From: Ryuthela nishihirai
Taxonomy: Eukaryota; Arthropoda; Arachnida; Araneae; Heptathelidae
Direction of reading: 5' to 3'
Assembly: GCA_038380435.1 (NCBI GenBank)
Contig: JAWZYU010000011.1
Location: 88,140,501-88,204,500, forward strand
DNA length: 64,000 nt
The notes beneath the pieces are model-generated. The model was not told the DNA's origin. It saw only the letters and a program-made list of their open reading frames with translations, and did no database searches. The position numbers and the translations under genes are program-made. Position 1 is the first letter of the stretch; every line of letters starts with the position of its first letter. This document shows, one piece after another, positions 23,930 through 55,422 of this stretch.

Positions 23930-24132
23930 AGAAAAAGAAATAAAAATAATCCCCAAAATGATAAATATAACATAAATAAAGTAAAACTGGTTAAGGAAAA
24001 GTAAAAGTGAATGGATGGACCATCACAAAAGTAAAAGTGATGGTCCATCCATTCACTTTTACTTTTCCTTAACCAGTTTTACTTTATTTATGTTATATTT
24101 ATCATTTTGGGGATTATTTTTATTTCTCTTTC
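23930..24132. repeat. Head-to-head Gypsy LTR palindrome
   Basis: Arms 23930-24026 and 24037-24132 (about 96 bp each) are near-perfect complements around a 10 nt centre. Each arm is the first part of the Gypsy LTR seen at 24771 (GATGGTCCATCCATTCAC, then CCTTAACCAGTTTTAC), so two LTR starts face each other. Confidence 0.9.
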
Positions 24133-29365: not shown

Positions 29366-31074
29366 GTTTGTGCAATTAAATTTTTTTCTTTATATCGCAA
29401 TAATTGTTTATCATTGTTCATATACAAAGTAAATTTGTATAACTGCTCTTGATATTAAATAAAAAGTTCATAATTCCAGTTATCAGTGACATATCCTGGA
29501 GATACAACAAGACATGCAAGAAAAAGCATGCTAACTTCAGTATACCACATACCTGAAACAGCTGTACCAGCATTAGTTACAAGTTCTCGTTCCAGAAGTT
29601 GGAACAGAATACAATAGTATATTGCCAATTTCAAGGTTATGTTCCTGAGATTGCCACAAACAGCAAAACCATCAAGAACTAAAGGCTTTTGGTAAATGTG
29701 AGTTAAGTACATATTGTTACAACAGATGAATGAGCAATAATGAAACCGTGGTGTGATGTATCGTCTTGTCTTGATGCTCACATGAACTACAACATGAGAA
29801 TTACATAACTAACCACTATGAATGAACAACTTAAAATATAATAAAGAATATGTTGTTGTAATTAGGAAGATTTTGTGTGAAGGAAAATGTAGTTTGTTTT
29901 AGTCTGTGCAGTGTAAATGTTTTTATTTGTGTTCGTGGGAGGTTAAATAAGTTTATTAGTGTTGATCCTGTTAGCAGACTGGTAAGAAAAAGAAGGGTGC
30001 TTAGGACAATTAAAGATGTGGCTGAGGAGGTTATATGTTAGTCGAACAAGCAGAACTAATCTCAACTTCTCTGTAAGAAGGTTTATCAATTGATGCATAG
30101 TTATATTTCATTTGTTTCGGAATTGGTAAGGTTATTCTTTATAGATTGCAGGTTTGTTCACAGATATGATTGTGCCACTTATCGACTATTGCGAAAAAAC
30201 TTATTTTTTCTTTATAGGAATACAAAAAGGTGCTTGTGTAGGGTAAAAAAGGTGATTTCTTCTGAAGGTTTATTTTTATATTGATGAAGATTTGTGTTGG
30301 TTGACTTTAGTTTATATATATGTTTTTATTCATGCTTTTGTAATAGATTACATTATTTTAAAATTATAATTGTTAAATACTATTTTTGAACTCACGCTCA
30401 GTTTCCATCCGTTTAATTTATAACAGTATTTTAAATGCATTAGAATAGGACATGTGAAATCCTTGCATACTTTTCACAGTGAAATTCGAAATCTTCGGGA
30501 ACCTTTTTTAAAAAATAAAAATGCTGTTTGTGTCAAGCTCCAGAGAAACTCTGTGTAATAAATATTTCTTTCAACACCTATCCTTCTACTGCACTCAAAT
30601 TATTTTAAGCTTTGATTAAAAAAATTTCATTATTAACATTATTGTTTAAGAATATGCTGAGCAGAAGCGATTGTTGGATTTCATAAATATCATATCTTTT
30701 TTCTATATATTATTTATATATAATTTTGACTTAACAGATAATATGAAGCACCTTCCCTATGCACCAAATACCCACCATGTCCAGTGGCAAAGTGTGACTT
30801 TTTGAACAGGGGAACCAATTACCAAAAGCATTGCCCATATTACAATAGAACTCTGTTCCAGTACTTTTATTTCCAAATCATTAAATCAGAACACCTTTTC
30901 AGTACTTATTTCCAAATCATTGAAACAACATTGTTCTGATATTTGCTGCTTCTATTTCATAGATTGGAATGCATTCCAGTTCTTGAAGCATTGAGTTTGA
31001 GTGTTGTTTTTGAAGCACTGAGTGCAGATAGTTCTATATATATTTTTAAAGAAACTTTTTCTGCAATATTAAAA
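29366..31074. other. VPS18 intron, unassigned part
   Basis: AT-rich intronic sequence. A minus-strand frame at 29781-29455 (108 aa) shows no motif I recognise and could be chance. No repeat was identified. Confidence 0.5.
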
Positions 31075-31272
31075 AAAATGCCCATTCAAACAGCTGTTTG
31101 CCACAGAGCGTCTGACAGGAGCATGTCAGTTTATACACCATAGTGAAATAGGTCTGTTAGGATGGCTGGACTGCAGCAGAAAGACAACACAAAGATCCAT
31201 GCCTTACCTGGGGCTCGAGCCCAGGTCCCCTCTGATCAGTAGCCAAGCACACTAACCACTCGATCATTGGAC
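31075..31272 (-). mobile_element. SINE family B copy
   Basis: On the minus strand it begins with a tRNA-like head (GAGTGGTTAGTGTGCTTGG, then GGGCTCGAGCCCC). It continues through a body ending CTGTGGCAAACAGCTG. It matches 52335-52542 and 45113-45310. It is more diverged than those two. Confidence 0.8.
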
Positions 31273-37064: not shown

Positions 37065-37142
37065 CATGGATCTTCTGCTATGGCAATATAAACTGTCAGA
37101 CCTCTGTGGCAACCAGCTGCTTGAGGGGATATTTTATTATTT
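37065..37142 (+). mobile_element. SINE family B, 3' fragment
   Basis: It matches the last 80 bp of family B (TATGGCAATATAAACTG, CAGACCTCTGTGGCAA, GCTGCTTGAGGGG). The head is absent. Confidence 0.75.
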
Positions 37143-38482: not shown

Positions 38483-40200
38483 ACTTGCTGTGTGGGTATG
38501 GTGCCCGGACAGCCCTGGTGCCCAATTGGGCATCCCCTTGTTGGACTCTGTGGTTGGTGGGGACAACAGGCACTGAATCCCAATCAACAACCATTAGTCC
38601 CAAAAAAGAAAATTCACCGGAGAATGGCGCAAAAAGAGCTTGGCATGAGTCTTGATTGTCATCGTTGTCTTCGTGGCTTCCTTCGTTCCCGAGATTCCTG
38701 GTGATCCACTCTACAGGTGATCAGGTTCTAGGGGACATGTCCCCCTTTTTTATCAACAAGGGTTTGAAAGGTCTTACGGTAGAACCGAAATCTGTCAAGT
38801 GCCTAAAATCTGATGACTTGCAGGTCGAGATTGTATGCTCCAAGCATTCGGAGCTTCTGTTGAACGTTACAGAGATTGGTGGAGTGGCAGTCGAAGTCAC
38901 TCCACAGGCGTGATCTCCAAGTGGGACCTCATCAAGGTTTCTGAGGAGGAAATCCTCTCGGAGCTTTCAGCTCATGGGGTGATAGCAGTCCACTGGGTTT
39001 TGACATGCCATGATGGAAAGTTAGTACCCAGCCGGGTACTAATCCTAACTTTCAATACGCCACACCTGCCTACTTTCATCAAGGCAGGGTACTTATAATG
39101 CAAGGTATGGCGATTTATACCAAACCCTCTGTGTTGTTTTCAATGCCAGACGTTTGGCCATGTCTGCACTGCAAGCCCACCTGTGCCCGTTGTGGCAGTC
39201 AGGATCATCTTGAACCTGGCTGCACAGCACAAAAGGCATGCTTTGTAAACTACCATGGTAAAACATCCAGCGACGACTGTCCAAAGTGGCTGGAGGAGAA
39301 AGAGGTATAGCGCCTAAAGACCCTCCATAACAGTTATCCAGAGGCAAGGAAGCTCGCTGCACTGCCTGCCCCACCTGTCAAGGTCTCCTATGTTGGTGTG
39401 ATCATTGGAAAGCACATCGTTAAGATGTCTTCCTTGGCAGTGCATACTGATATCAGCGTCCCACCAGCTGAATCTTCCTTGCCTGTTGGGGCGGGGGTGG
39501 CTCAGTCGGTAGCGCGCCAGGCTCGTAATCTGTAGTTCCCACGTTCGAGTCCCAGCTGGGTCAGCGTTGAGATTTATCTCCGCAAAATTCCCCGCCCTGC
39601 CCACGGTCAGTAGGGGACACCGATGGGTTTGGAAAGGCCGCCGTCCGTCGGATGGGACGTTAAGCCGTGGCCCCCTGTGCGGGAGAGACATACCCTGTGC
39701 ACGTTAAAGAACACGCTGGATGGCCTTGACGGGAAGCTACCATCTGTCTCCCAACAGCTGTTCCAGTGGGTCCCCTCCCCCAACCTTCTCTGAGCCTTCG
39801 GGGTCCATGTGACCTGGCCATTTAGCCCATGGTGTGCAAAAAAGTGCTGCTCAGAGGTAAAACAACCCAACCCAAATCCTTGCCTGTTGCCAAATACCTC
39901 GACGCAGGTGAAGCCTACGTTGGTGTCGATCTCGACATCGACTCCAGTTTCCATTCCACATCTGTGCCTTCCACTTCCACCTCTGGAAGGCCTCCTCCAC
40001 CCCGCCCACAGACAGTAAGACCTTCCAAACCCAAAGGGCCCCCACCAGGGCCCAAAAAGAGAATTTTAACACCTCATGCAGCGGTCTCTGATCTGTCACT
40101 CAGACAACTCCGAGGACATGGACACAGACTGCACCATTTTTCCGAAACCGTCGCTGGCGACAGTTAAATTGTAAGTGGTCCACCACTACTTCTAAGACCT
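38483..40200 (+). pseudogene. LINE ORF1, gag-like protein with zinc knuckles
   Basis: Frames at 38656-38913, 38835-39098 and 39098-39310 overlap into one degraded ORF1. An N-terminal segment has SPFFINKGLKGL and PKSVKCLKSDDLQVEIV. A middle segment has GVISKWDLIKVSEEEIL. A cysteine-rich end has CARCGSQDHLEPGC, a CCHC-type RNA-binding knuckle. Such proteins coat LINE RNA. The C-terminal tail was split by the SINE at 39489 and resumes at 39890. At least two frameshifts are present. Confidence 0.75.
39489..39876 (+). mobile_element. SINE family A, complete, with 13 bp target duplication
   Basis: Flanked by TCCTTGCCTGTTG at 39476-39488 and 39877-39889. The head (GGCTCAGTCGGTAGCGC) and B box resemble a tRNA. 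The anticodon-loop position reads CTCGTAA, as in a tRNA with anticodon CGT (Thr). A conserved body of about 280 bp and an ACAACCCAACCC tail follow. This is the best reference copy in the window. Confidence 0.93.
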
Positions 40201-40220
40201 GAGATGGCCAAACTCTTACA

Positions 40221-40780
40221 ATGGACTGTCGTGGATTCCAGAGGAATATTGACGATATCAAGGCCCTCCTGAGGGCACACGAACCCATCTGTGTGTGCCT
40301 ACAGGAGACATATTTGCAGACAGCCAATGATCCCACTATTCGGAACTTCTCATTCACTGGGACAGGAATGGAGATGGTCCAGCAGATGGTCACCATCCTT
40401 GTGAGCAACCATTCTCCATTCCAGGTCATACCACTCACCACTGACATAGAAGCAGTTGCCATCTGCCTCTTTGTGGGATTTTCGTTGACTGTCTATTCTG
40501 TCTATCTACCACTCGAAAACATCGTTTTCTGGGATGACCTTGATTGTCTTCATCTCGCAGCTGCCATCCTCATCATGGGGACTTCAACGCAAACAGTTCA
40601 CTTTGGGGCAGTGCTAACACCAATGGGAGGGGCAGGGTCCTGGAGCAGTGGCTCCTGGATCCCTCACTCTCCCTGTTGAACACCGGTGTTAGTAGATAAT
40701 TTCAGTCCCCAACCCGCACATTTACTGCCATTGATCTCACCATCTGCTCCTCCTCGATCCTTCCACTCTGTAAATGGTAG
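40221..40780 (+). pseudogene. LINE ORF2, endonuclease domain
   Basis: The frame at 40221-40679 begins with an NCRGFxxN-like segment (MDCRGFQRNIDDIKALL) followed by EPICVCLQETYL, the start of an AP-type endonuclease that nicks target DNA. The middle keeps YSVYLP, and a frame change precedes the AILIMGTSTQT segment (usually a GDFN-like motif). The final SDHFP-like segment is readable near 40790 in another frame. Dead through frameshifts. Confidence 0.75.
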
Positions 40781-40980
40781 ATCGAGGACAACCCGTATGG
40801 AAGCGATTACTTTCCTGTGGTGTGCAGCCCTTCACGTGTATCCTGGTGGAAACTTGATTAGGCTCACGGGTGAGTTCCATGAGCACTCTGTCAGCCAGGA
40901 GCCAATCAAAGTTGCAGTGGCAGAGATGACGTACTGCATCATCCATGCAGCTGTCTCCACTATTCCTCAGACTTCGACTC

Positions 40981-41202
40981 GGGGGGGGGGGGACTCAGTA
41001 GCATGCCAGGCTCATCTGTAGTTCCCAGGTTCGAGTCCCAGCTGGGTCAACGTTCAGATTTATCTCCATAAAAACTCCATGCCCTGCCCACGATCAGTAG
41101 GAGACATCGATGAGCTTGGAAAGGCCACCGTCCGTCGAACGGGACGTTAAGCAGTGGTCCCGTGTGTGAGAGAGCCATACCCTGTGCACGTTAAAGAACA
41201 TG
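40981..41202 (+). mobile_element. SINE family A, 3'-truncated copy at the missing RT core
   Basis: It contains the head (with 12 G at 40981-40992 and a damaged A box), the B box GGTTCGAGTCCC and the first part of the body, then stops at TTAAAGAACATG. Downstream LINE sequence resumes beyond the polymerase core, so insertion and a deletion of LINE sequence coincide here. Confidence 0.8.
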
Positions 41203-41214
41203 TATAACGCCCGG

Positions 41215-42179
41215 GATTCGCTGGTGAAGGTGCTGAACCCTCTACTCCATCAGGCCCTCCATGTTTGCATGGAGGTCTTCTGCACTTCACCGATCCAGAG
41301 TCTCTATGTGGAGACCGACGAACCATCGTTATCTATTCACCATCAGCAGTTGTCCCTAGAGTATGCAGCAAAATTGTGATCCTTGCCAGGCCATCCCACT
41401 TGGGACTGCATTTTCAGTCCCCAGTGGGAAATGTTATACCAGAATCGGCCAACTGTCATTCGTCCTTTTGGTTTGCATGTCCAAGGTTACCTGTGAGACA
41501 TTAACACCAGTCTCGATAGCATTGCACAATCGACAGCCGATCCTCTTCCACCTTGGCTCGCTGTTTTCCCTTCCTGCGATTTTTCCCTGTGCAGGATGGG
41601 AAAGGCCTTTACACCTGACTGTGTGTATCAGCAACTCTTTGCCAGCCATCGTGCTGCATACCCGGAATTCTTGCCTGTTTTCACAGATGGCTCGAAGTCT
41701 GCTACATTTGTGGGATCAGCCATGGTCTGCTGTGATGTAATCATTGCAAACCAGATCCCACAGCAGTGTTCCATCTTCACTACTGAGTTGCATGCTATCA
41801 GTCTTGCCTTGGACCACATAGCAGCTAAGCATCATCGTTGGTGTGTTCTTTACACTGACTCAGCTCGCTATAGGCTTTGATCTCTGTGAGGCATCAGCCT
41901 TACCCTATTATCTCCAAGATCCGCCAGCAGCTCCATCTTCTGGCATCCACCACCAAAGTTCTCTTCTGTTGGATTGCCCAGTCATATCGGGATCAGGAGC
42001 AATGACTTGGCAGATTCTGCTGCCAAGTCAGCCACACCCTTGTCCAATTCTCTGCTGCTGGTTTCATACTTGGACTTCTGGCAGTGTTTTTCCATGAAGC
42101 TCCAGACACAGTGGCAGATATCTTGGTCTGAACAAGTTGCTAACAAGCTTTTCGAGATGAAGCCCATTGTCAAACCGTG
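41215..42179 (+). pseudogene. LINE ORF2, RT end and RNase H domain
   Basis: Decayed thumb-region sequence leads to an RNase H domain near 41675-42010: FTDGSKS (first Asp), TELHAISLALDHI (Glu), LYTDSA (Asp) and SHIGIRSNDLADSAAKSA (late Asp/His region). RNase H removes RNA from the cDNA hybrid. The last codons before the insertion read NKLFEMKPIVKP, and the frame resumes at 43537. A frameshift separates the YTDS and SHIGI parts. Confidence 0.8.
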
Positions 42180-43524
42180 CCCCTCCCCCGAGGGGGACCA
42201 CTTTGTTGTGGTAGGGGCACCTACGGTGCCTCTGAGAAGTTGGTTTCAGATCGTTGGCTCTCTGGAGTTCAGATGTCTTGTGGCCCCCGTGGAGGGGACC
42301 GGACTAGGGTCTGCGGACTAGTTTGAATGGGGGGCTGGTCCAGTGGACTCGTTGACTTGTCCCCCGAGAAGCTGGGGGTTGCAGCCCTGATTGAGGGGCC
42401 GTTCTCGGGGAGTACTGCGGATTGAGCTGCACACCTTCTTCATGCACTCATCTTGTGGGTTTCTCGATGCGGTCTCAGTGATAGTGGGATCAGAGTGCTG
42501 TTTGCTGGGGGCTTCGGCCCGTTCACAATGGAGAGGACGAAGTTGGAGGCTTGCGACTGGGTGGTACTCTCACCGCCACCCTGGTTGGCGGGCTTATCAA
42601 TGGAACAGCCAAACTAAGAGTCCCCAGCAACTTTTTTGGCAGCCAAGATTAGGTTACTGACAAGACATGGTGGAGGATCTGAAGGTGCCTCTGTGAAACT
42701 GGGTGCCAGCTCGTTCGTGTTTCTGGCGTGCCTTGCAGCCTCGATGGAGGGCTGGCTGGGGGTCTGCCGACTGGGACTGAAGTCCCGAGTCACGTGGACT
42801 TATCGTCCGGCCCCTGCGAAGTCCTAGGACGTCTTGGTTTCCCGATGGAGAGGCTTTACTGCGGGCCTGCCGACTGGAAGGATCCCTAGTTGAGTGGGTT
42901 CCTTTATCGCCCCAGAGAAGTCTGGGGTGTCATGGAGTGGCCTTGTGGGGGCCTGCAGGCCGGGATTGGAGTCCGCAGTCATGTGGGTCATCTGCTCGGT
43001 TGCTGAGAAGTATGGCTCGAGGTATTGCTGGGGAGGCCGCCGGTTGGTGTCCTGGTGGAGAGGACAAAGTTGAAGGACATGCCGAATGGGAGCGCGGCAC
43101 TACTAAGTGTGACTTATCGATGGGAGAGCCTGAAGACTCTCCATCATGATAGCTTCCCCAAGCAAAAAGTTAGGTCATCTTATGAAATTTAGGCATCTAA
43201 ATTCAAAAGTAACATCTTATCTGTATTGGCAATTATGTGGTCTAAATCCAGTGAGTTATATTTTGGTCTTATTAGGCATGAAAAGATTTTCAAAATTCAA
43301 AAAGCCCACTCACTGCACCTCAATGATTAGCTCATCAGACAGACTTGTCTCTAAAAGTAAGATCTCTCTCTTCAAACAGGTCTTCTCCTGCAGTTAGGAA
43401 TGTTAAATGAAGGTCGTGTATAGAATGTTCTCTAGATGGTTGATGTGGTTTCATGGCAACTCCCTCAAGGTGATATGCAGTCTCTGAACTGCAGTGCACC
43501 GGGATTGCTGCATACATTATTACG
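42180..43524. mobile_element. Unclassified GC-rich insertion with 12 bp target duplication
   Basis: The insertion is bounded by exact copies of TGTCAAACCGTG (42168-42179 and 43525-43536), and removing it restores LINE sequence continuity. The first 970 bp are GC-rich with recurring modules (GGAGAGGACGAAGTTGGAGG near 42530, GGAGAGGACAAAGTTGAAGG near 43060). The last 380 bp are AT-rich. There are no terminal inverted repeats, no poly(A) tail and no credible protein. A related copy lies at 62390-63070 on the minus strand. Confidence 0.75.
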
Positions 43525-43536
43525 TGTCAAACCGTG

Positions 43537-44080
43537 GCAGTCTTGTTTTCGCAGGAATCACGAGGAGGAAGTTGTATTTGACTGGCTCTGCTTAGGTCAT
43601 TTGTTTCTCACGCATTCATTTCTTCTTAAGGCGAACAATGAACCTAAGTGTGAGTTTTGTGACACCATTTTAACCATTAAACATATTTTAATCATTTGTC
43701 CTGCTTTTAATCTTGAACGACGTTTATATTTTACCTTTCACGATTTTACGTCCCTTACACTCGGACAACTTTTATCAGATCATTGCTTTTTGTCGTCAGT
43801 TTTTTTCTTTTTAAAACATTGTGGTTGTTTTACTAGAATTTGATTTTTACCTTGTATTTTCTATATATCACCCAGGTCTCTTACACCTGTGATTATTTTA
43901 TTCTGTTCCTCCAGTTGTTTTAAATTGTACACTTGTTCTTTGTTGTTTTACATTGTAGCGTTATGATTTTAAATTTGGTTGCTGGTATGCACGACTTTTA
44001 TCTATTATATTGTCATTTGTTTGGCGCATTTTGGCCTAGTAGCCAATGCGCCATAAAAACAATAAAAAACCAACTAACCA
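43537..44080 (+). pseudogene. LINE ORF2 C-terminus and 3' UTR
   Basis: The frame continues with a basic/acidic segment (RRNHEEEVV), then HLFLTHSFLLKANNEPKCEFCD, TIKHILIICPAF and NLERR, the cysteine-histidine motif found after RNase H in this LINE group. Stop near 43842. The 3' UTR to 44080 matches 2870-3290. Confidence 0.8.
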
Positions 44081-44093
44081 CATCGGTCGATGT

Positions 44094-44156
44094 ACATCCG
44101 GGTGTTATGATCAGGGAAAGTCCTTTGAACTTTTCCTGATCTTAACACTCGGATGT
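44094..44156. repeat. Hairpin at the 3' side of the Penelope-like element
   Basis: Arms 44094-44121 and 44129-44156 are 28 nt with 3 mismatches and a 7 nt loop. It lies just outside the LINE tail and downstream of the Penelope-like coding region. Penelope elements can carry hammerhead ribozymes, but I do not see the conserved CTGATGA...GAAA core here. Confidence 0.85.
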
Positions 44157-45112
44157 GAATAAGATAAATGACAAAAAGTTAAAAGGTTCAAAAATATTCT
44201 TATATGGCATGAAAAGTTAAAAACTTTTAATGCTCTGACTCGAGTTTCGCGACCACGTCGTCGCTTTTCAAGGGCATGTCTAAATGCCAAAGCGTTTATT
44301 GCATCCCAAATGCACTATGGGATCGTTCACTACGAGGAAGAGGGGTTCGTTCTGTGGGCTGTTGGGCTATCATCTTTTTTACGCCATGTTATGTTTTCAT
44401 CCAGCAGTAAGCGCCATGGTGGTGGTAGTAAATTTCTTCATTGATACATTTGTCTCTGTTGTGGTATATATCAATTTGCTCAAGAATATCTAGTTCCGAT
44501 TGTGTTGGGAGGACATATTAAATTTTGGCCCCACCAATGTCCGGTATTTTTTCGAGTTCGTTCTTTATTTTCACCAATTCGGCATTAATGTTGCCATTGC
44601 TTATATCATTTTGATGTTCCTTCAGCCTTATTTCAAAAGTCTGCTTGTTCTACCTATAGTAGTCAAGTACTTCAGCATGTTGGTTGATGGTGTCTTTCAC
44701 AGGTAAATTTTCTATACGCCACCAGTGGGGTGTATTAGTCACGATCGTTTTTTACTTTTGCTAGGATTGAGTGGTGGAGTGTATTTTTATGTTATATGGG
44801 CTGCCTCCATTATTCACACACCCATGGAATATTTGGTATAGGGGATGTATAAATATACACATGCCCTATTCTGCGCCACAGGTGTTTCGGTGCCTTTTAG
44901 GCTTTGAAGTCGCACCTCCTCTCAACAGCTCTGATCCAATTTTTGGGATAACCTGCTTTGGTGGCGACATCATATAGTCTTTTTCTTTATGTTTCAAAGG
45001 CGGAGGTTATTGTTGCATATCTTTGATTCCGCAGAAATGTATGCATAGCAGCTTTCTTATGTTTCATGGAGTTTACTATATACTGAAAATACGAACTTTT
45101 AATTTTTTGTGA

Positions 45113-45310
45113 TTTGGTTAGCACGCTTGGCTACTGATCTAAGGGACCTGGGTTCGAGCCCCGGGTAAGGCATGGATGTACGTGTCATTTTTCTGATGAG
45201 GTCCTGCTATCCTCTCAGACCTTCTACTATGGCATATAAACTGACAGGCTCCTGTCAGACCTCTGTGGCAAGCAGCTGCTTGAGGGGGTATTTATTTTAT
45301 TTTATTTAAT
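45113..45310 (+). mobile_element. SINE family B copy
   Basis: The head reads GGTTAGCACGCTTGGCTACT, then GGGTTCGAGCCCCGG (a good B box). The body ends CTGTGGCAAGCAGCTGCTTG and the tail is ATTTT repeats. The first 15-20 bases of the head are missing relative to 52542. Inserted within the Penelope-like element. Confidence 0.85.
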
Positions 45311-45779
45311 AGGTCTAAGAATGGTAGCTGGCGTTCTTAGACTTATTAATACCCTTTATACCTTATTAATACCCTTTATATGTTCCCCTGTTTGTTTCGT
45401 TATAAGTATGTCGTTAATATATCTCATCCAAAGTAGACGTGGAGCTCTGTATTTAATTAAGCACCTTATCTTCAATATGCGAACGGCTATATCGCTGAGT
45501 AGTCCAGAAAGTGGTGATCCCATCAGTACTCCAAATATTTGGTGGTAGATAACTCCGTTGCTCTGAAAGTATGTATTCTGTGTGACGAACTTGGGTTCAC
45601 ATGGGATACTGCATACTTCCATAGTATTTCCACAGCTCGCCACTTTTCTGAAGCACCTCTTCAATAAAGTGGTGTACAACTTTAAGAGGCATGTTGGGGT
45701 AGAGTGACGTTATGTCAAATGATAGCTTAATTTTTATATATAAAATTTAAGTACGTGATGCTTATAAAAATAAAGTATA

Positions 45780-46218
45780 ATGTATCACAGTTATCTAACT
45801 AGTTTAACGCCTGGACAAAAACAAAAATTGAAGAGTGCATTTGTAAATAAGAATCCTATAACTTTAAGTATTGATCCACAAAAGAAAGGTAACGATACTT
45901 TGAAACTGACGAAGAGACAAATCATTAAAACTGAAAAAATCTAAAACGCCAGTTCGACTTCGTTTCAGCAAAACACATCTAGGTGGATTTCTGCCGTTCT
46001 TAATACCTGCACTCGTAGCATTGGGAAAAGCAGCTGCAGTTGGAGCTGCGGGATATGCTGGTACTAAGCTTGCACAAAAAGTTCTAGGAAAGGGGTTATA
46101 TGTTCCTGGAAAGCAAAGAGCAGCTGGCTTATCTAAAAATAAAAGAAAAGGAAAAGGTTTGTACATTCCAGGAAAACAAATAGCTCAGGGATTTAAAAAA
46201 AAAAGAGCCAGTAAGTAA
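45780..46218 (+). pseudogene. pX/pVI-like basic core or minor capsid protein
   Basis: Starts at ATG 45780, four bases after TAAAG. Residues 1-53 carry a helical start with LTPGQKQKLK and a DTLKLTKRQI motif. A frameshift in an A6 run (45934-45939) then shifts the frame, which continues with GGFLPFLIPAL, an alanine/glycine-rich membrane-active-type stretch and a Lys/Arg-rich tail with two GKGLYVPGK-like repeats ending at the stop 46216-46218. This architecture (basic, GGFLP hydrophobic core, GLY-rich tail) is typical of adenovirus pX/pVI-like proteins of Polintons and adintoviruses. It would bind DNA and the inside of the capsid. Confidence 0.72.
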
Positions 46219-46236
46219 CTCAGATATCGAAAAAAA

Positions 46237-46632
46237 ATGAAAAACGAAAATGGATTCCGTGGTGTATACTCTATCGATTCTTTGCCAACAAAAATATTTA
46301 AGAACGAAAATGGTATAGTGAACTTTGACGTTTTCCGTGGTTCAGGAACTCATTGGGTAGCTTATTTTAATGATGCGAAGTTATCTTCGCATCATTGAAT
46401 CTGATCCATTCGGTTTATCGCCACCAGAAGAAAACACTATTTACTTTCATCTTTAAAGCCGATCATGTATAACTCTTCACAAATTCAAGCAAATTATTCT
46501 GTAAAATGCGGTTACTATTGCATCTATTACATTAAACGAAGGAATAATAACATAAGCCCATATGATGTATTGTATCAGTTTGAACAAACTCCTAACGATC
46601 GGAATGAATTGTTGGTAACAACTAGCATATAA
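46237..46632 (+). pseudogene. Adenain-like maturation cysteine protease, broken by a palindrome
   Basis: Begins at ATG 46237, 18 nt after the core gene. The N-terminal part shows the family's GFRGVYSIDSLP start and a GSGTHWVAY segment holding the catalytic His. A 12 bp perfect inverted duplication (46369-46380 and 46385-46396) then interrupts the frame, and TGA 46396-46398 ends it. The remaining part, in another frame, has a DPFGLSPP segment (acidic residue) and KCGYYCIYY (catalytic Cys), ending at 46632. Such proteases process virion proteins in adenoviruses, Polintons and adintoviruses. All three catalytic regions are present but not in one frame. Confidence 0.82.
46369..46396. repeat. Perfect 12 bp palindrome inside the protease gene
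   Basis: AATGATGCGAAG, TTAT, then the exact complement. It looks like a short inverted duplication created after insertion, and it is one of the disabling lesions. Confidence 0.95.
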
Positions 46633-46664
46633 GTACTACATAGTACTACACTATATTAATAAAG

Positions 46665-47375
46665 ATGGTACTCATAACTATCAATTCCTCTACTATTAGA
46701 GCATACAACCCCGAAGATTTGGAAATTAATTATGAAACGCCGATCACACTCAATTGTGAATACGAGATAGCACTGATCGGTAGCAATATGTGATATTCCT
46801 GGTACAACATCAGTGATAAATATAACAATAACACTCTGAAATACTTCAATGGAAGGCAATGGAATAAAATAACTTTCCCGAATGGAATGTACGATATAGA
46901 CGGATTTAATGACTTTTTGAAAAATGTCTTTGGGGATCATAACCCTATAATACTAGAAAGCAACCTCCCCACATTAAGATTTGTTTTTCGTTTGGCAAGA
47001 GGATATAAAATAGATTTTTCTGAAGGAAAGTTGCGAGAAATACTAGGGTTCGATTCGAAAATTATCGATGCAGCAAAAAACGAGGGAAAGTTCCCACCCA
47101 ACAAAACGAGAGGGGTCGATCGCATTCTAATTCATTGCTCTATTGTCGAATCTTCCTATCTCAATAACTAGAAGAGCGACGTGTTGTACAGTTTCGTACC
47201 TCAAACACCGCTTGTCAGTTTAATCGACACACATCCTTTCTTCCTCATATATTTACCGCTGAATAAAACTGATTACATTTACAATGTTAGAATGAAAGTA
47301 ACCGATCAGAACAATAAAATAATTGACTTAAACAAGGAAAACGTGACTTATATGTTACACATCAGATCCAACTAA
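46665..47375 (+). pseudogene. Penton-like (single jelly-roll) protein with two nonsense codons
   Basis: ATG 46665 directly follows TAAAG. One frame runs 236 codons to TAA 47373-47375, interrupted only by TGA at 46791-46793 (next to a WYN segment) and TAG at 47169-47171. The N-terminal half has a beta-rich ITLNCEYEIALIGSNM stretch, then YSWYNISDKYNNNTLKY. The C-terminal half has DRILIHCSIVESS, LYSFVPQTPL and an IRVKVTDQN-like strand pattern (VRMKVTDQNNKIIDL). This order resembles the penton of Polintons/adintoviruses, which forms the capsid vertices. Position between protease and hexon supports it. Confidence 0.72.
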
Positions 47376-47377
47376 AG

Positions 47378-47518
47378 ATGAAGATACTGAGAAAACGAAT
47401 TAAAATATTTTATACAAATCCATCGCCTATAGTTCGAAAAAACGAGAAAATATCCTCTAAGAGCAGAAATATTCTTAATCAGTTAATATACGGAAATGGC
47501 CTAAAAATCATAAAGTAA
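47378..47518 (+). CDS. Small basic frame of the viral module, unknown function
   Basis: A 46-residue frame whose ATG (47378) overlaps a TAAAG word formed partly by the penton stop codon. It ends 7 nt before the hexon ATG. It is rich in Lys/Arg (KILRKRIKIFY at the start) and has no recognised domain. Intact as read. Tight spacing argues that it belongs to the viral gene cluster, but the length makes chance possible. Confidence 0.45.
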   Translation: MKILRKRIKIFYTNPSPIVRKNEKISSKSRNILNQLIYGNGLKIIK

Positions 47519-47525
47519 GTATAGG

Positions 47526-48873
47526 ATGAACGTTGAAGCTACTTACTGGAATTTGTTCGAAGATCCAATAGACGATAATTCAACGACAAAATACGAGTAC
47601 TTGGAATATCGAGAAATCAATTTGAATGTTAAAAATCTCGAAAAATACGAAATATTTACCAAAGACGTTTTTCTACATCCGCACAATAGTTATGTTTCAC
47701 GTCAAAGGCAAAATACTGAAATTATATGGGTCTGATATCGGCGGCAATGATGTACTTACGATGGTCAATAACGGGTACAACATTTTTAAGACTGCTCAAT
47801 ATTGTATAGAAAACAAAGAATTGGAAGATATTGAATTGCCAGGAGTGACGATCGCGATTCACAATTTAATTGATTTTACGGAAGACTTTTCACACACTGC
47901 TGCCACAAGTATGATGTGGTTCAAAGATACCGCAGACAGTTCGAAAATGAATAAGTATTTGTACGATGGAGGCGAAGATAAACTGGACACGAATAATAAA
48001 ATAGAGGATTTTGCACAAACGTTGAAGAAAAATCCTGAATTCAATCAAGGATTCTCGGACAGATATGAAATTACAAAAAATAGTCAAAACGTAAGTTTAT
48101 TCTTACCACTGAATCGGCTGTTTAGATTCTGCCGAGACGTGGATAAAGTGTTTCGCGGTCATAAACATAGCATAAAACTAGAAAAAAGTGATGACAAAGA
48201 CATTATTCAGAGAGTTGGGACTACGTTGTATAAATTTGAAATATCTCACGTATCTTGGTTTATTCCAAAAGTGGAGCCATCACTACAAGTACTTGCAAAA
48301 CTAGAATCTCAGTTAGCAAGCAGCAATCCACATGAAATCTTTTGGGAATCGTGCAAACTGTACAAATCAGATACTCGAATTGACTCCTATGTCAGTTGGC
48401 GGGTTACTACAACTCAAAACAAACCTGTCCATCTTTATTTCGTCTTACAAAAGTCTAACCGATTAAGTAATCAAACCAGAAACTATATGGTGTTTGATCA
48501 CATGTTACTAGAACGCATTCAGATCAGAGTGAATAGCAAACAGTTTCCCGAACAAGAATTCGAGTGCAACTTTGAACCCAACACTTTAGACTATGCGCGA
48601 GTTTACAACAGCTTTTTAGCTGCAAAAAATATGGATATCGACTTGGGTACACAAGTCAGTTACCAAGATTTTATGAAACTGTATCCGATATTCCACTTCG
48701 ATGTCAGCAAATACGAATCACGTCTGTATGAATTATCAGCAACTGCTGATATCGAAATACGATTTAAATTAAATAGACTGCCAAACGAATTATATCACGT
48801 ATATTGCGTAATTGTCTTAGAACGAAAAGCAACTTTACAACCACTAGAGGGAAAACTATTAGTTGTTGGCTAA
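47526..48873 (+). pseudogene. Double-jelly-roll major capsid (hexon-like) protein, one frameshift
   Basis: Starts at ATG 47526. The first frame covers about 58 codons; near 47696-47700 a 1-2 nt change moves the frame, which then stays open for more than 380 codons to TAA 48871-48873. Total about 449 codons, within the range of Polinton/adintovirus capsid proteins. Family-like features are the short repeat of aromatic and acidic residues at the start, the SLFLPLNRLFRFCRDVDKVF segment near residue 200 and a following basic KHSIKLEKS strand. It resembles the Polinton-derived F54H12.2-like proteins of animal genomes. It would build the icosahedral shell. Confidence 0.85.
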
Positions 48874-49186
48874 AAAGCTATTTTAAATACAATCAAAATT
48901 TACATCTATTTGCACGTTTAAAAAATATGTATGTTTCCCTCTTCTAATTGAATCTGATGAAATGTTTTTAAGAGAAAATTTCAATTAATCCGTTCAAATA
49001 TTGTTGAAGATCCTAAAAATTCTGATCATTAAGATTGTTTAAGGATTTTTTTTTCACTTCAGGAGACATTCTTTTCAAACTTCTATCTGGACTAGAAAAA
49101 TTAACGGCCGACGCACCAACGGGCGACCAGCGATTCAACTAAGCAACTTAGAAAAAACATACAAAAATAACTACTTACTCTTCAGG
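48874..49186. other. Sequence after the hexon gene, unassigned
   Basis: AT-rich, no recognised gene. It may include the 3' untranslated region of the viral module. Confidence 0.4.
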
Positions 49187-49862
49187 AGGGGAAAGTCAAA
49201 GTGACTTGGAATCGCTTGAGACCTTCTTAAATACTCCACAGAACCAAAACTGAATCTTGGATTTCCGGTTTGGATAAAAATTATTATTTAGACTTTGCTA
49301 CTGAAACTTGAACATTGGTTTTGGATAAACATTTCGGTTTGACAGCAAAATTATTACTTGGACTTTGCTACTGAATCTTGAACTTTGGTTTTGGATAAAA
49401 AATATTACTTGGACTTTGCTACTGAATCTTATTAAACTTTGGTTTTTGGTAAAGATTATTACTTGGACTTTGCTATTGAATCTTGAACTTTGGTTTTGGA
49501 TAAACATTTCGGTTTGATAGCAAAATTATTACTTGGACTTTGCTACTGAATCCTCTGGTTTTGGATAAAAATTTCGGTTTGATAGCAAAATTATTACTTG
49601 GACTTTGCTACTGAATCTTGAACTTTGGTTTTGGATAAAAATTTCGGTATGATAGCAAAATTATTACTTGGACTTTGCTACTTAATCTTAAACCTTGATT
49701 TTGGATAAACATTTCGGTTTGATAGCAAAAATTATTACTTGGACTTTGCTATCAAACCGAATTTTTTTTATCCAAAACCAAAGTTCAAGATTCAGTTTTG
49801 GTTGTGTGGATTATTTAAGAAGATCTCAAGCGATTCCAAGTCACTTTGACTTTCCCCCTGCG
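49187..49862. repeat. 70 bp minisatellite flanked by ~95 bp inverted repeats
   Basis: Eight units share the ATTACTTGGACTTTGCTACT core (starts near 49281, 49351, 49400, 49456, 49525, 49591, 49661 and 49731). Full units are about 70 bp; two lack an ATTTCGGTTTGATAGC segment and are 49-56 bp. The array is bracketed by inverted repeats, about 49187-49281 and 49765-49862, which include GGGGAAAGTCAAAGTGACTT and its complement. Confidence 0.9.
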
Positions 49863-50600
49863 GTATAGAGTCCCAATCTAAGATAAGTAGGATTTAAATA
49901 GATTTAATTGTAAAGCTGGAACGGGAATTATTTTGTGGACTTTTATAAAAGTTTTAGTATTCTTATAGCAAAATTATTACTTGAACTTTGATTAGATAAA
50001 AATTTTCATATTCTTCTATGATAAGAAATTTATTGAGTTTTGGTTTTAAATTTCGGTTGAGTATTTAAGAAAGATTTCAAGCGATTCGAAGTCAGTTTGA
50101 GTTCCCCCTTCGGTATAGAGTCCCAATCTAAGATAAGTACGATTTAAATACATTTAATTGTAAAGCTTTAATTGTAAAGCTGGAAAACGGGAATTATTAC
50201 GTGGACTTTAGTTAGATAAAGTTTTAATATTCTTGTAGCAAAATTATTACTTGAACATTGATTAGATTAAAATTTTAATATTCTTCTATGTTAAATTATC
50301 ATATACTTCAGAAAATTTCGGTTTGGTAACAGAATTATTACTTTGGACTTTTATTAGATAAATGTTTTAATATTATGCAAAATTATTACTTTAACGTTGC
50401 TTAGATAAATGTTTTTAATATTCTTGTAGCAAAATAATCACTTTGGACTTTGATTAAAAGTTTTAATATTTTTTCTATGATAAGAAATTTATTCACTTTT
50501 GGATAAAACTTTTAATATTCTTCTTTGATCAGATTTTGATATTCTTCTTTGAACAGAATTAATACTTTAGACTTTGCTTAGAAAGTTTTGATTCTGTTGT
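49863..50600. repeat. Degenerate continuation of the minisatellite
   Basis: The block TATAGAGTCCCAATCTAAG occurs at about 49864 and 50114, so a unit of about 250 bp (49800-50050 and 50050-50300) is duplicated. It is followed by repeats built on AGCAAAATTATTACTTGAAC and TTTTAATATTCTTCT. Confidence 0.8.
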
Positions 50601-51000
50601 ATCCAGTGAAGTGTATGATAACTTAACAAAACACATCATTTTTTTTATCTCATACACACACACTTCATTTCAACCTAATTCATTTTTTATCTCATACACA
50701 CACACCCCATTTCAACCTAATTTATTTAAACTAATTCACAAATTAGTTTAAACCTAGTCTTTAAAAAAAAAACTTAAATTAGTTTTTCACATGCTAAAAA
50801 CCCCCGTTTTTTTTCTAATTTTCACACATATTTTCACAAAAACCACAAGAAACATACTTTTGCCCTCATCCCCCATAACTTTTCCCATGGATTTTCATAG
50901 AATTCTCGAGTCCCTTTTACTGTGCCAGAACTCTCATTTATGCTACTACTGCTCATAAAGTTTCTTTCTAATAATCCTACTGTGCCCCTTCTATATTATA
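50601..51000. other. Non-coding, short tandem duplication
   Basis: Two copies of a 46 bp unit (TTTTTTATCTCATACACACAC) at about 50637-50723. The rest is AT-rich with T and A runs. Confidence 0.6.
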
Positions 51001-52640
51001 GTAAGTCAATGCCGCTGGCTATACCAGAAGTGTACTTTACTCGAGCCTCTCTTTGCATCGCTCTGCTCCCTTGACCTCCCAAAGGCGAACCGAAAGTCAG
51101 GCTGGTTGGTGGCTAACTTCGGTGCCTTCAGTGCACCAAAGGTTCGCGGGCTGTCTTCATCGGTGACATTGACATTTGCAAGCATGCCTTTGCTCACCAA
51201 CACCTCACTCAAGAATGCCAAATTTCTATCTAAGTTACTCTTAGCAGCACTAATTAAATCTCTTCTTGTCTGCTAACTCCATTTACAGCTGAATTTTCAG
51301 AACTGCAATTTCCCTTACACTTTTGCATCTCATTACATGACTTACCACTATTTTCTGTGTTGAAGTTCACCAAACTTGTATTTTGTGTCACATCCCCTGT
51401 CACAGCTGAACTCATACTTTGATTCTTAGATCCAAACTCGACCTTGGCAGTTTCCTTAAAATTTTTAATTTCTCTAAATTCCTCTATTCTGATTTCTTTC
51501 CCGATGCAAACATCACTAATAAACAATTAAATTTTCCGAATTTAATTCGGAATTAACTTAAATCGGAATTCAATAATTGAACCTTCAAGCTACATCCTTG
51601 CCCTTCTTGTTTATAATCTAAATTATTATCAGTAAGTCCATCCATATCTAGAAATAGCCAGCTTACCCTCATTATCATTCTTTTCGTCTTGTAATCGATT
51701 TCTTCACATTCACCAACACTAGCTTTATAATTTATAACATCCAATGAATTGCAAGATAAAGGCAATTCTATAACTGGATTCCTGCAACCTTTAATTTCGA
51801 AATCACTTTTCTTGCTCTTAAAACGTAAATTCTCTTTATTGTATATATTAATTTCTATCTCTCTAGCAGGCAAGTTATGTTTTCCAATCAAAATTCAGGA
51901 AAACGCTATCGGCAACTTCGTGTGGAGCCTTGCCCACAGTATGATCTCGTAGCTGGGAACATTCAGGCAGTTCATCCAATTCCCGGAATTCGGGGTAGCC
52001 AAAGCTGACAAATTGTCGAATGAGTCTAAGCTGCTTCGCCTCAATTGCAATCTAGCCAACTCCATTCACGAGTTCGTTCTAATTCCTCCTTCCTAATTCC
52101 CTTATTCTCTTTTCTTTCTCCTGTTCTCATCAAGTGACATGCATTCCCTACATTACTGGGTCTGTCACACCTTACCCCTGTACTCCGTCTTTCCATCTCT
52201 GTCCATCGTCCTAATTTTGTCTTCTAGTTCCCAAATCATCTCCTTGTGTTTTTGTATCTGCTGATCGCGCTTTTGTTTCTCGACCCTCTCTTCTTCTTTA
52301 CTGTGAATCTCCATTTTCCGCACCCTAGATTCTAAAAATACAAATAAATACCCCCTCAAGCAGCTGCTTGCCACAGAGGTCTGACGGGAGCCTGTCAGTT
52401 TATATGCCATAGTAGAAGGTCTGCGAGGATGGCAGGCGCTCAGCAGAAAAACGACACAAACAGCCATGCCTTATCCGGGGCTCAAACCCAGGTCCCTTAG
52501 ATCAGTAGCCAAGCATGCTAACCACTCGGCCATGGGACGGCTCCCTAGATTCTATAAGTTCTAATTCCAAAACTATTTCATTACACTCTTCACAATCAGC
52601 ATAATTAGAATTCGCATACCCATATTTTAGAGCTTCTCAA
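51001..52640 (-). pseudogene. Unrecognised multi-part coding remnant with coiled coil, split by a SINE
   Basis: Minus-strand frames at 51891-51553 (112 aa), 51526-51254 (90 aa) and 51221-51006 (71 aa) follow a charged, coiled-coil-like stretch at about 52330-52160 (VEKQKRDQQIQKHKEM, WELEDKIRTM). Upstream of the SINE at 52335-52542 the frame continues with ADCEECNEIVLELELIESR, so the SINE interrupted one reading frame. Serine/asparagine-rich and acidic segments follow. I do not recognise the family. A retrotransposon gag or an early gene of the neighbouring viral element are both possible. Confidence 0.4.
52335..52542 (-). mobile_element. SINE family B, complete, with 12 bp target duplication
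   Basis: Flanked by CCCTAGATTCTA at 52323-52334 and 52543-52554. On the minus strand the head reads GCCGTCCCATGGCCGAGTGG, then TTAGCATGCTTGG, and a B-box-like GGTTTGAGCCCCGG, as in a class II (Ser/Leu-like) tRNA. The body includes TGGCATATAAACTGACAGGC, and the tail is ATTTGTATTTTTA. This is the reference copy of family B. Confidence 0.92.
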
Positions 52641-53264
52641 ATACATAGTTTTTTTCTTCCTGGTAATATTTACTGATTCTCGGGAATGGCTGTATAAAAT
52701 TTGAAAAATCGACTGTTTATGTTTATACATTTAAAAATTAATCAATTTACAGGAAACAAAGAAAGATTACTTATTGTTTATTAGCTCCGTGAATTTTTGT
52801 TTCATACTGCATTCAATACGACTGAAGTTACTGTTGTTTTTTGCAAACTGGAATATGATACTAGGTGATTTTATAGGAATAATATAGTAGTAGGATTTTA
52901 AAATTATTAAGTGTTAATTATTAAGAGAGAAATTTAATAGAAATTGCATCTTAAGCAATTTCTGAGTTTTTTTTTAAATAAATATTATGTATGCTTCTTT
53001 TGTTCATTTCTTTAAGGACATAAATTTTTACTCATTAAATTTAATGAATTAATTTTTAATGGATTAATGAACTTTATAACCATTAATTAAAAGTTGTCAT
53101 TAGTTTGGTATATGGAAATATTGCACTGCAATGCATATATGATTCAGAGCATTCTGTTCTGTTATTACTCATGCAATTTAAGGATTTATTTATGTACCTC
53201 TGGAAAAAGTCTTGTAGTGTTCAAGAGATACTGTCTAGAGCGTCACTTGGGTTGGAAGAAGAGC
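52641..53264. other. No recognisable feature
   Basis: Very AT-rich sequence with no coding signal. Confidence 0.4.
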
Positions 53265-53540
53265 GGCACTTGGCTTCGAAGCAGGTCCGGATCTGGGAAA
53301 AAATTGGGTGGGCAAGAAACACAATCGAACGGAGAAAATGCAAGGGAGGGGGCAAAAAATTGGATTTCCAATGCAGTATAACAATTCCTCCCTCCTTCTT
53401 TTACAGGTCTTTAAAAAATGTCTTCAAAAAGGCATGAAATAAAAATTAGTTTCATAACTTTATGCATCTTTTACTATTATTAGCATTCTGAAAGAGGGTG
53501 CCATGGCCCGCTTGGCCCTCCCCTTTGGATTCGTCGTTGC
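53265..53540 (+). repeat. Unclassified interspersed repeat R, copy 2
   Basis: Matches 9315-9600 in order: CGGATCTGGGAAAAAATTGG, AAAATGCAAGGGAGGGGGC, GGATTTCCAATGCAGTATAA, then a CCCGCTTGGCCCTCCCCTT-like end. Possible plus-strand frames here (53094-53437) are shadows of the repeat. Confidence 0.7.
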
Positions 53541-53563
53541 TTCGAAGTATGCTTACTGATATA

Positions 53564-54314
53564 CACTATGTTGAAAAAAAGTATCCGGACACTTCCATAT
53601 TATGTGAATGGAAATCCACTTTCAAAGCTCCCCAACATTGAAAATAAACCTTTTACGCAAAAACTGTTGTTGGCGATAAATTGTAGAAATCACTCAAATC
53701 TCTCTAAATATATTTCCCGCAATATTCGTGCAATGTTTAAAAAATGAATGTAAGTTGAAGCATTTATCTCCAACTTTTGACACTTGTGAAAAAATAGTTC
53801 AATAGATAAAATACAACTGTTGTAACAATTTGTTCACTAGCATAAATTAAATATCTGAAGTTTGTAAGACGATTTTTTAAGATTTCATCAATTTGTCAAT
53901 TTCATCAATGTGCTGTTAAATAGTCCTGCTGCAATGGCTCTTTAAATATTGATCGTAGATTGTTGAAAATTGACACTGTCACATTGCCTTCAAATTGATG
54001 AAATCTTGAAAAATCGTCATACAAACTTCAGGTATTTATGTTAGTGAACAAATTGTTACAAGAGTTGTGTTTTATCTATTGAAATATTTTTTCACAAGTG
54101 TCAAAAGTTGAAGATAAATGCTTCAGCTTCCATTCATTCTTTAAATATTAAACGAATATTGCGGGAAATATATTTAGAGAGATTTGAATAACATCTACAA
54201 TTTATCGCCAATTTTTGCGTAAAAGGCTTATTTTCAATGTTAGGGAGCTTTGAAAGTGGCTTTCCATTCATATAATATGGAAGTGTCCAGACACTTTTCT
54301 TTTTCAACATAGTG
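53564..54314. mobile_element. Foldback DNA transposon with ~340 bp inverted repeats, no transposase
   Basis: The element starts CACTATGTTGAAAAAAAGTA after TA and ends with the complement. The two arms (about 53564-53910 and 53975-54314) are long near-complements and leave only a short central loop. No protein is encoded. TA-adjacent ends and the CACTATGTTG terminus suggest a Tc1/mariner-mobilised non-autonomous element. The right flank is CA rather than TA, so the target duplication is imperfect. Confidence 0.85.
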
Positions 54315-54430
54315 CAAGACATAATTGAATGAATATTCACAGGATCTCGAGTGCAAATGTACGAGATTTGTGACAGAAAATAATCATTGATTGTGAATCA
54401 GGTCAGGATCTAGGAGGTGGGGGATTCTAG

Positions 54431-54534
54431 CATTCTTATAAAGATCTACGATCAAAGTGGCCGGATCTGGGTAGAACCCCCAGGTTACCACCCAGATCCG
54501 GCCACTTTGATCGTAGATCATCTTTATAAGAATG
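54431..54534. repeat. Near-perfect hairpin, ~42-45 bp arms
   Basis: Arms 54431-54472 and 54490-54534 are complementary except for a 3 nt insertion in the second arm, with a 17 nt loop. The arms contain CGGATCTGGGT, resembling the start of repeat R. Confidence 0.95.
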
Positions 54535-54589
54535 GTAGAAAGGCTAATGGAGATCAAAAATCATTACACTTCTGCATATTCCCGCGTTT

Positions 54590-54740
54590 TTCTACAATAT
54601 TTTTAAAAAATTGGAAATGAAAGGGAAACTGTTACACTGCGATGGAAATCCAATTTCATTCCCCTCCCCACTTTTTACTGGCTTGATTGATTGATAAGTT
54701 CCCTGCAAACACCCCATTATTTTTTTTCTAGGTCCGGACC
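54590..54740 (-). repeat. Unclassified interspersed repeat R, partial inverted copy
   Basis: The complement reads GGTCCGGACCT...GGGGAATGAAATTGGATTTC, matching part of 53265-53400. Confidence 0.55.
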
Positions 54741-55422
54741 TCGTACGAACCATGGAATGCAAAAGTATTCTAAAAGTAACAGCTAGAAAAATAACCATCT
54801 CCTCTGGCAAATATCGTCTCTCCATTTAGATGTTCGTTTCCAAAGAGAAATGTTTCTTATTTTCCTCCTTTAGCACTCTAACAGTGGAAATCCGAACTAA
54901 CATATGAATGGGAAAATGCAAATAATAATAATAATGTGTAGTATCTGTACATCACTAAACAAATTTTTCTCTTAAAACCAAAAAATTGCATTTTTCTACC
55001 AACACCCTGAAGGTAAAGGGGCAAATCACTGCTGCCAATGTAATGTAAATTTCTTAACCATCACACTTTACTAGCAAATTTTCGAATCTTTAGCATTAAT
55101 GGATCTTTTTGCCATATTTGTTTAGTTTTGGCATTTTCCAAAATTTCCACTGCTAGAGGTATTATCAAAATTATTCAGTGATTGGGAAAATGTGAATGCT
55201 TATGGGAATTTTTTTTATTTCTAAAAACCAACAAAGTTGAATTTCTACAGCCCCCACCTTTTTTTTTGGGGGGGGGGGGGCATGATACTGATAAATGTAG
55301 TTCAAGATTCTTCTAAATTGTTTTATTCTCTAAGCATAGTTTATCAAGTTCAGTGTTAGAAATATGAGACAAAACTATGCAATTCTTTTAATCTAGTCCA
55401 GATAGCATCAGATTATCTAATG
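54741..55422. other. No recognisable feature
   Basis: AT-rich, with a T/G homopolymer boundary (G13 at 55268-55280). No coding signal. Confidence 0.5.

What the first reader, a model, noticed from the sequence alone, without database searches (positions are those of the whole stretch)
45780..48873. Compact endogenous Polinton/adintovirus structural module with five consecutive frames
Seen: five same-strand frames separated by 2-32 nt, reading as core protein, adenain-like protease, penton-like, small basic frame and hexon-like protein. Known: this gene set defines the virion module of Polintons and adintoviruses. Inference: a virus-like element entered this host lineage. The low number of lesions (one or two per recognisable gene) suggests fairly recent inactivation, and better copies may exist elsewhere in the genome.
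Basis: partly seen in the sequence, partly recalled or inferred. Interest (0 to 1): 0.88.

Follow-up and report, generated by a model that had tools for sequence, protein, structure and literature searches.

The report
Broken fragment of a Polinton element
A decayed, shortened copy of a virus-like jumping element (a Polinton, also called Maverick) that still carries recognisable virus-shell genes and has many sister copies in the same large genome; a familiar kind of element, in a family not named here.

Summary
The hexon frame matches the double-jelly-roll profile. The protease frame has 8 relatives, 7 of which match the adenovirus endoprotease profile. The penton frame has a homologue beside protease and hexon in a viral contig. 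But the module is only the right-hand part, about 45,725-50,950, of a Polinton/Maverick copy. 101 hexon places, this one included, were scored in the 3.11-Gb genome. Sister copies show opposite-strand integrase with chromodomain, inverted terminal repeats, (AGT)n...(ACT)n ends, exact 6-bp target duplications in 4 of 6 two-ended copies, and spans of 14.6-16.5 kb in the largest three. The integrase lies beside the module in 16 of 20 other copies but is missing here. PolB and ATPase were read by eye only. Four of five genes are broken. Most lesions look private, but the hexon frame change is shared by 6 of 17 evaluable copies, so a hexon-broken lineage may have multiplied. New member of a known kind; modest interest.

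The parts
45725..50950 (+). Polinton/Maverick fragment: left-truncated element ending at its right terminus
   Evidence: similarity to 6 of 10 sister copies with fetched flanks stops at 45,725 and to a seventh at 45,735; 9 of 10 share the right end at 50,950, and the 40 bases printed beyond it differ between copies
45780..46218 (+). core protein gene (adenovirus pX/mu-like), one frame change
   Evidence: pieces 45774-45944 and 45910-46218; PF05829 Adeno_PX E=0.0034, 17.7 bits, below the cut-off of 25, so a weak match
46237..46632 (+). adenain-like cysteine protease gene, two frame changes
   Evidence: 8 relatives at 41-55% identity; 7 of 8 relatives match Peptidase_C5; the relatives' profile matches S273R and adenain in the PDB; the model of one relative matches them by fold
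46665..47375 (+). penton-like (minor capsid) gene, two in-frame stops
   Evidence: tblastn with the 247-aa L001 homologue covers 46758-47366, E=3e-26; lies one small gene upstream of the hexon, the commoner Polinton place (PMC4028283, passages); fold not tested
47378..47518 (+). small basic frame, 46 aa, open
   Evidence: found in 20 of 20 other copies examined; function unknown
47526..48873 (+). [quoted passage not shown]
   Evidence: PF21738 E=7.1e-16; full-length homologues align over 47526-48867 with one change of frame; low-confidence model matches DJR capsid proteins
48874..50950 (+). non-coding right arm with tandem and inverted repeats
   Evidence: repeat arrays 49178-50727; shared with sister copies; right arms of the window and 9 others run from 816 to 2475 bp
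50601..50950 (-). right terminal inverted repeat (part that matches the left TIR of full-size copies), ending ACTACT
   Evidence: left ends of three full-size copies match about 50,680-50,950 in reverse at 84-90%, with further pieces to 50,601; terminus

Best explanation
The module is the virion-gene half of one copy of a multi-copy Polinton/Maverick (adintovirus-like) family integrated in a large eukaryotic, probably animal, genome (host not named; animal is my inference from the repeats). Shown: the family has 14.6-16.5 kb copies with inverted terminal repeats, (AGT)n/(ACT)n ends and 6-bp target duplications; a right-hand virion module (core, protease, penton-like, small basic, hexon) on one strand; and a retroviral-type integrase with a C-terminal chromodomain on the other strand. 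Read by eye only: an FtsK/HerA-type ATPase and a protein-primed PolB in the same opposite-strand block. Inferred from established Polinton biology: PolB copied the element using its terminal repeats, the virion genes built an icosahedral DJR capsid matured by the adenain-like protease and packed by the ATPase, and the integrase inserted new copies with a 6-bp staggered cut. The window copy lost everything left of 45,725 (INT, ATPase, PolB, left repeat), by deletion or rearrangement (mechanism inferred), and carries stops and frame changes. It cannot act on its own. Part of the family, this copy's lineage included, may have multiplied while carrying a broken hexon, in which case capsid came from sister copies.
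For: Hexon: PF21738, 46 homologues by profile, DJR capsid proteins by fold. Protease. Penton homologue next to protease and hexon in L001. 101 hexon places scored, the window's own included. Integrase core (best 3dlr_A, E=2.9e-7; entries named PFV integrase from 6.9e-7) plus chromodomain (E=1.1e-6) in sister copy c29; integrase on the opposite strand within 3.6 kb in 16 of 20 other copies, c29 itself among them. TIRs of about 254-968 bp, 89.6-98.0% identical, in 5 of 6 two-ended copies, broken up in the sixth. TSD exact in 4 of 6, 5 of 6 bases in one, none in one. Published Maverick end motifs and 6-bp TSDs (PMC8097293, passages). Synonymous share of single-change hexon codons 171 of 416 against 0.238 expected without constraint, which fits purifying selection while the family spread (the 7 comparisons all share the window copy and are not independent).
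Against: PolB and ATPase pieces were named by motif only; three PDB searches with two PolB pieces and one ATPase piece gave no match to a relative, and the PF03175 search of the genome did not complete. The core match is below its curated cut-off. The hexon model is of low confidence (mean pLDDT 60.5). One of six two-ended copies has no TSD. One of ten sister copies (c11) does not share the right end. No left end was found for 4 of 10 (c11, c14, c17, c212), though for c17 a further 8 kb was searched. 4 of 20 other copies have no integrase where it is expected.
Confidence: 0.95

Rival explanations
1. A different DJR virus (polinton-like virus, or a chimera with another replicase) that merely shares adintovirus-like virion genes.
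For: The virion module alone cannot tell: adintovirus-like virion genes occur with other replicases (PMC11071296, passages), and the viral contig L001 carries protease, penton homologue and hexon together with DNA methylase and glycosyltransferase matches. PolB is not confirmed by profile.
Against: Sister copies carry a chromodomain RVE integrase, TIRs with Maverick end motifs and 6-bp TSDs.
Confidence: 0.03
2. A stand-alone virion-only element or genome segment that multiplies without its own integrase and PolB.
For: No INT, ATPase or PolB was found in the window, and a 4.2-kb copy (c25) with TIRs and an exact TSD contains the hexon but no integrase within 3.6 kb.
Against: 16 of 20 other copies have the integrase next to the module, and no left TIR was found in the window. 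Short copies are more simply internal deletions.
Confidence: 0.04
3. Capsid genes kept by the host for a function of its own.
For: The hexon frame is open for 415 codons, and hexon comparisons show a synonymous excess.
Against: Four of five genes are broken; other copies are broken at different places; 101 places were scored. Selection while the element spread explains the synonymous excess.
Confidence: 0.01
4. Assembly chimera or contamination.
For: Viral-type genes in a cellular contig, four of them broken.
Against: Interspersed repeats lie on both sides in the window (SINE-like copies at 45115-45310 and 52335-52524), and copies lie in dozens of contigs of up to 155 Mb, with target duplications where both ends were seen.
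Confidence: 0.01

Closest known systems
Polinton/Maverick elements of animals (PMC4028283; PMC8097293; passages)
   Same: DJR hexon, penton-like gene one gene upstream of it, adenain-like protease, RVE integrase, TIRs, (AGT)2/(ACT)2 end motif, 6-bp TSD, 14.6-16.5 kb span in the three largest copies
   Different: This copy is truncated; the family has right arms of 0.8-2.5 kb with repeat arrays, and TIR-to-TIR copies of 4.2, 8.0 and 8.6 kb; PolB and ATPase not confirmed by profile
Adintoviruses (as defined in PMC11071296, passages)
   Same: Integrase with C-terminal chromodomain; hexon, penton-like and adenain-like genes; a pX-like core (weak match)
   Different: OTU-like PolB N-terminus and BLASTp recognition against reference hexons could not be tested; decayed and endogenous
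IMG/VR contig IMGVR_UViG_3300044246_000721 (L001/L002)
   Same: Protease, penton homologue and hexon together
   Different: Hexon 23% identical (BLASTP E=1.3e-25; no Pfam match of its own); penton homologue on the opposite strand; DNA methylase and glycosyltransferase matches; no Pfam match to integrase or PolB among the 10 of its 19 listed ORFs that were scanned

Membership tests
[quoted passage not shown]
   PF21738 E=7.1e-16; folds
Polinton/Maverick | minor capsid (penton), single jelly-roll, next to or one gene from the MCP | tested here: inconclusive
   homologue and position met; single-jelly-roll fold not tested; no relevant PDB match
Polinton/Maverick | adenovirus-like cysteine protease | tested here: met
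   through relatives of the frame:
Polinton/Maverick | RVE integrase | tested here: met
   in sister copies; next to the module in 16 of 20; not found in the window
Polinton/Maverick | protein-primed PolB | tested here: inconclusive
   pieces incl. a DTDS motif read by eye in sister copies; no relevant PDB match; PF03175 search of the genome unanswered
Polinton/Maverick | FtsK-like packaging ATPase | tested here: inconclusive
   Walker-like motifs read by eye; no relevant PDB match
Polinton/Maverick | terminal inverted repeats | tested here: met
   left end found for 6 of 10 copies with fetched flanks; window copy has the right one only
Polinton/Maverick | 6-bp target site duplication | tested here: met
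   exact in 4 of 6, 5 of 6 bases in one, none in one
Adintovirus | integrase with C-terminal chromodomain | tested here: met
   chromodomain at residues 305-348, E=1.1e-6, in sister copy c29
Adintovirus | PolB with N-terminal OTU-like domain | not tested
Adintovirus | hexon recognisable by BLASTp against adintovirus hexons | not testable with these tools
   no reference sequences at hand; Starrett 2021 not held
Polinton-like virus (PLV) | mostly no pPolB and no RVE integrase (PMC11071308, passages) | tested here: not met
   RVE integrase present in sister copies

The most novel reading that the evidence does not exclude
A sub-lineage of this Polinton family multiplied with the same broken hexon, riding on capsids or enzymes from other sisters, together with short TIR-to-TIR derivatives. 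That would be a capsid-defective, trans-complemented Polinton lineage inside one genome. (A regulated frameshift at the hexon N-terminus, of the sort proposed for some adintovirus capsid genes in PMC11071296, is a less likely reading of the same data.)
Probability: 0.3. Interest if true: 0.55.

Novelty: new member of a known kind. Interest (0 to 1): 0.35.

Why it matters
Polintons are taken for endogenous viruses, but their particles had not been observed (PMC8097293, start of abstract in the listing). A large single-genome family with full-size, truncated and TIR-bounded short copies, and with a lesion shared among copies, offers material to ask by computation whether Polintons spread through their own capsids (selection on the hexon) or also as passengers. 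Beyond that it is one more Polinton family.

Tried and rejected
Six-frame Pfam scans in 5000-aa pieces missed the hexon itself, so their silence means little. With 1000-aa pieces the hexon control was found (E=2.7e-15) and no INT, PolB or ATPase profile appeared at E<=1 in six frames of 42,774-45,775 and 48,874-54,875; one of six frames of 39,774-42,773 was scanned too. 138 protein pieces from the upstream parts of five sister copies gave 32 hits in the window; I take all 32 for other repeats inserted in those copies, because they come from stretches that the other copies do not share or hit many places; none is the c29 INT, ATPase or PolB piece.

Eight scans of viral contigs gave one contig, twice (L001, L002). 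One scan of genome contigs gave none. PDB by sequence gave nothing for the hexon ORF, one irrelevant row for the hexon profile A2 (E=0.45), and nothing relevant for the penton piece or its homologue.

The inverted pair 45115-45310 / 52329-52524 looked like terminal repeats but is an interspersed SINE-like repeat with two further copies in the window. I read 45359-45709 (-) as a Penelope-like reverse transcriptase; Pfam and PDB do not support it. In VIA-align, 1 of 50 rows shown (SIX6, a fungal protein) is not a viral capsid or scaffold protein.

The lesion test asks only whether the net frame offset to the window changes across a stretch, not whether the same base is changed. For the hexon it gave 6 of 17 shared. 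By tblastn (11 copies evaluable) the two hexon pieces were out of frame in 3: L043 and L044, which one search also calls shared, and L036, which one search does not. For the second protease frame change the two methods disagree: 12 of 17 shared by DNA alignment, but the flanking pieces in one frame in 12 of 16 by tblastn; I draw nothing from it. Counting shared hexon frame changes from match starts was dropped, because some low-identity rows that begin at residue 1 proved not to share it. More than 101 places is likely (3327 first-look candidates) but not counted.

Full report
Observation. The five frames exist at the stated coordinates, on the + strand, 18, 32, 2 and 7 nt apart. The largest, 47626-48873, is 415 codons long and matches Pfam PF21738 (double jelly roll-like) at E=7.1e-16, 58.7 bits over a cut-off of 27. 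Its true start lies upstream at 47526 in another frame: full-length homologues align first to 47526-47696 and then to about 47695-48867. The hexon gene is therefore complete but for one frame change.

Where it sits. The window is bases 88,140,501-88,204,500 of contig C11 of a 3.11-Gb assembly in 1680 contigs. It holds ordinary eukaryotic repeats: Mos1-type and DDE transposase pieces, endonuclease and reverse transcriptase of the non-LTR kind, a weak gag match and four copies of a SINE-like repeat.

The family. The hexon ORF was scored at 101 places in the same genome, its own included (101 scored of 3327 first-look candidates, so a lower bound); the other 100 are 75-91% identical in amino acids. 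11 of the 101 rows, the window's own among them, have no stop in the matched stretch; frame changes are not counted there. I fetched about 9 kb on each side of 10 other copies, chosen among the best-scoring rows, 8 kb further out for 4 of them, and 3.9 kb at the 5' side of 10 low-ranking copies.

Ends of the element. On the right, 9 of 10 other copies align to the window down to 50,950 (c11 does not), and the 40 bases printed beyond that point differ between copies. The element ends ...CTACTACT. The reverse complement of this end is found at the left of 6 of the 10 copies, 5 of which begin AGTAGT and one with a variant. Six-base flanks are identical on both sides in 4 of these 6 (c29, c28, c32, c25), differ by one base in c1 and do not match in c7. 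TIR identity is 89.6-98.0% over about 254-968 bp in five copies and broken up in c1. PMC8097293 (passages) gives (AGT)2//(ACT)2 ends and 6-bp target duplications for vertebrate Mavericks. Spans from end to end are 14.6, 15.7 and 16.5 kb in three copies and 4.2, 8.0 and 8.6 kb in the other three. On the left, the window copy loses similarity to 6 copies at 45,725 and to a seventh at 45,735, while sister copies go on matching each other further upstream.

What is missing here. Upstream of the module, on the opposite strand, sister copies carry an integrase (349 aa in c29; best PDB match 2.9e-7 to an integrase, chromodomain match 1.1e-6). Read by eye, with motif names recalled, they also carry an ATPase-like piece with Walker motifs, collagen-like repeats, a PLA2-like piece (in c7), and PolB-like exonuclease and DTDS-palm pieces. 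PDB searches with the ATPase and PolB pieces gave no match to a relative. The integrase lies within 3.6 kb of the module, on the opposite strand, in 16 of 20 other copies, c29 itself among them; it is missing there in c212, c25, L036 and L037. None of it was found in the window.

Decay and age. Hexon DNA of the window copy differs from 7 other copies by K2P 0.056-0.069, and TIR pairs of 5 copies by 0.020-0.068. No host rate is known, so no years are given. Of single-change codons in the hexon, 171 of 416 are synonymous against 0.238 expected without constraint; the 7 comparisons share the window copy and are not independent. This fits selection on the capsid while the family spread, as reported for cyprinid Mavericks (PMC8097293, passages). 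Lesions of the window copy in evaluable others: first penton stop in 0 of 19, second in 2 of 19, core frame change in 1 of 15, first protease frame change in 1 of 16, hexon frame change in 6 of 17 (second protease change unclear, see Tried and rejected). Most lesions therefore look private, but the hexon one may predate some insertions. The test compares net frame offset, not the base changed, so independent changes are not excluded.

How it most likely works. Established Polinton biology supplies the mechanism: PolB copying from terminal repeats, an adenovirus-like capsid, integrase insertion with a 6-bp stagger. The 6-bp duplication, the inverted ends, the integrase and the virion genes are shown here for the family; replication and virion formation are inferred. 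The window copy is a dead fragment.

Known or new. It meets the tested defining features of Polintons and one of adintoviruses (chromodomain integrase), with PolB, ATPase and penton fold unconfirmed. High copy numbers of defective Mavericks have been reported in other genomes (PMC8097293, passages), and adintovirus integrase insertions are abundant in Ixodes ticks (PMC10675110, passages). It is a new member of a known kind. The open point of some interest is whether a hexon-broken lineage multiplied.

Literature seen. PMC11071296: first two of eight parts, and passages. PMC11071308, PMC8363768, PMC10675110, PMC4028283, PMC2836005, PMC8097293: passages only. Starrett 2021 is not held and was seen only as cited. 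Five paper searches were run, none for this family by host, so I make no claim that it is unpublished.

Noticed in passing
48874-50950: The right arm of the element carries nested tandem repeats (51, 70 and 270 bp units) and inverted repeats; arm length varies from 816 to 2475 bp between copies.
   Followed up: partly
L007/L017/L018 (copy c25): A 4.2-kb copy with both terminal repeats and an exact 6-bp target duplication holds the hexon but no integrase within 3.6 kb; two others span 8.0 and 8.6 kb. Possible non-autonomous Polintons.
   Followed up: partly
L019 (5' flank of copy c29) and L027 (5' flank of copy c7): Read by eye: collagen-like repeats between the ATPase-like and PolB-like pieces, and in c7 a PLA2-like piece between integrase and core.
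   Followed up: no
L001 (IMGVR_UViG_3300044246_000721): Viral contig with protease, penton homologue and hexon of this broad family together with matches to DNA methylase and to TET-associated and family 25 glycosyltransferases.
   Followed up: partly
P0010: A hexon relative whose cluster holds 705 member sequences, with a longest contig of 1.19 Mb: possibly another heavily multiplied Polinton family.
   Followed up: no
24077-24800: Tandem duplication of a 357-bp unit, 2.0 copies, 99% matches.
   Followed up: no
45115-45310, 52335-52524, 31070-31258, 37069-37142: Four copies of a SINE-like interspersed repeat; two flank the element in opposite orientations and mimic terminal repeats.
   Followed up: yes
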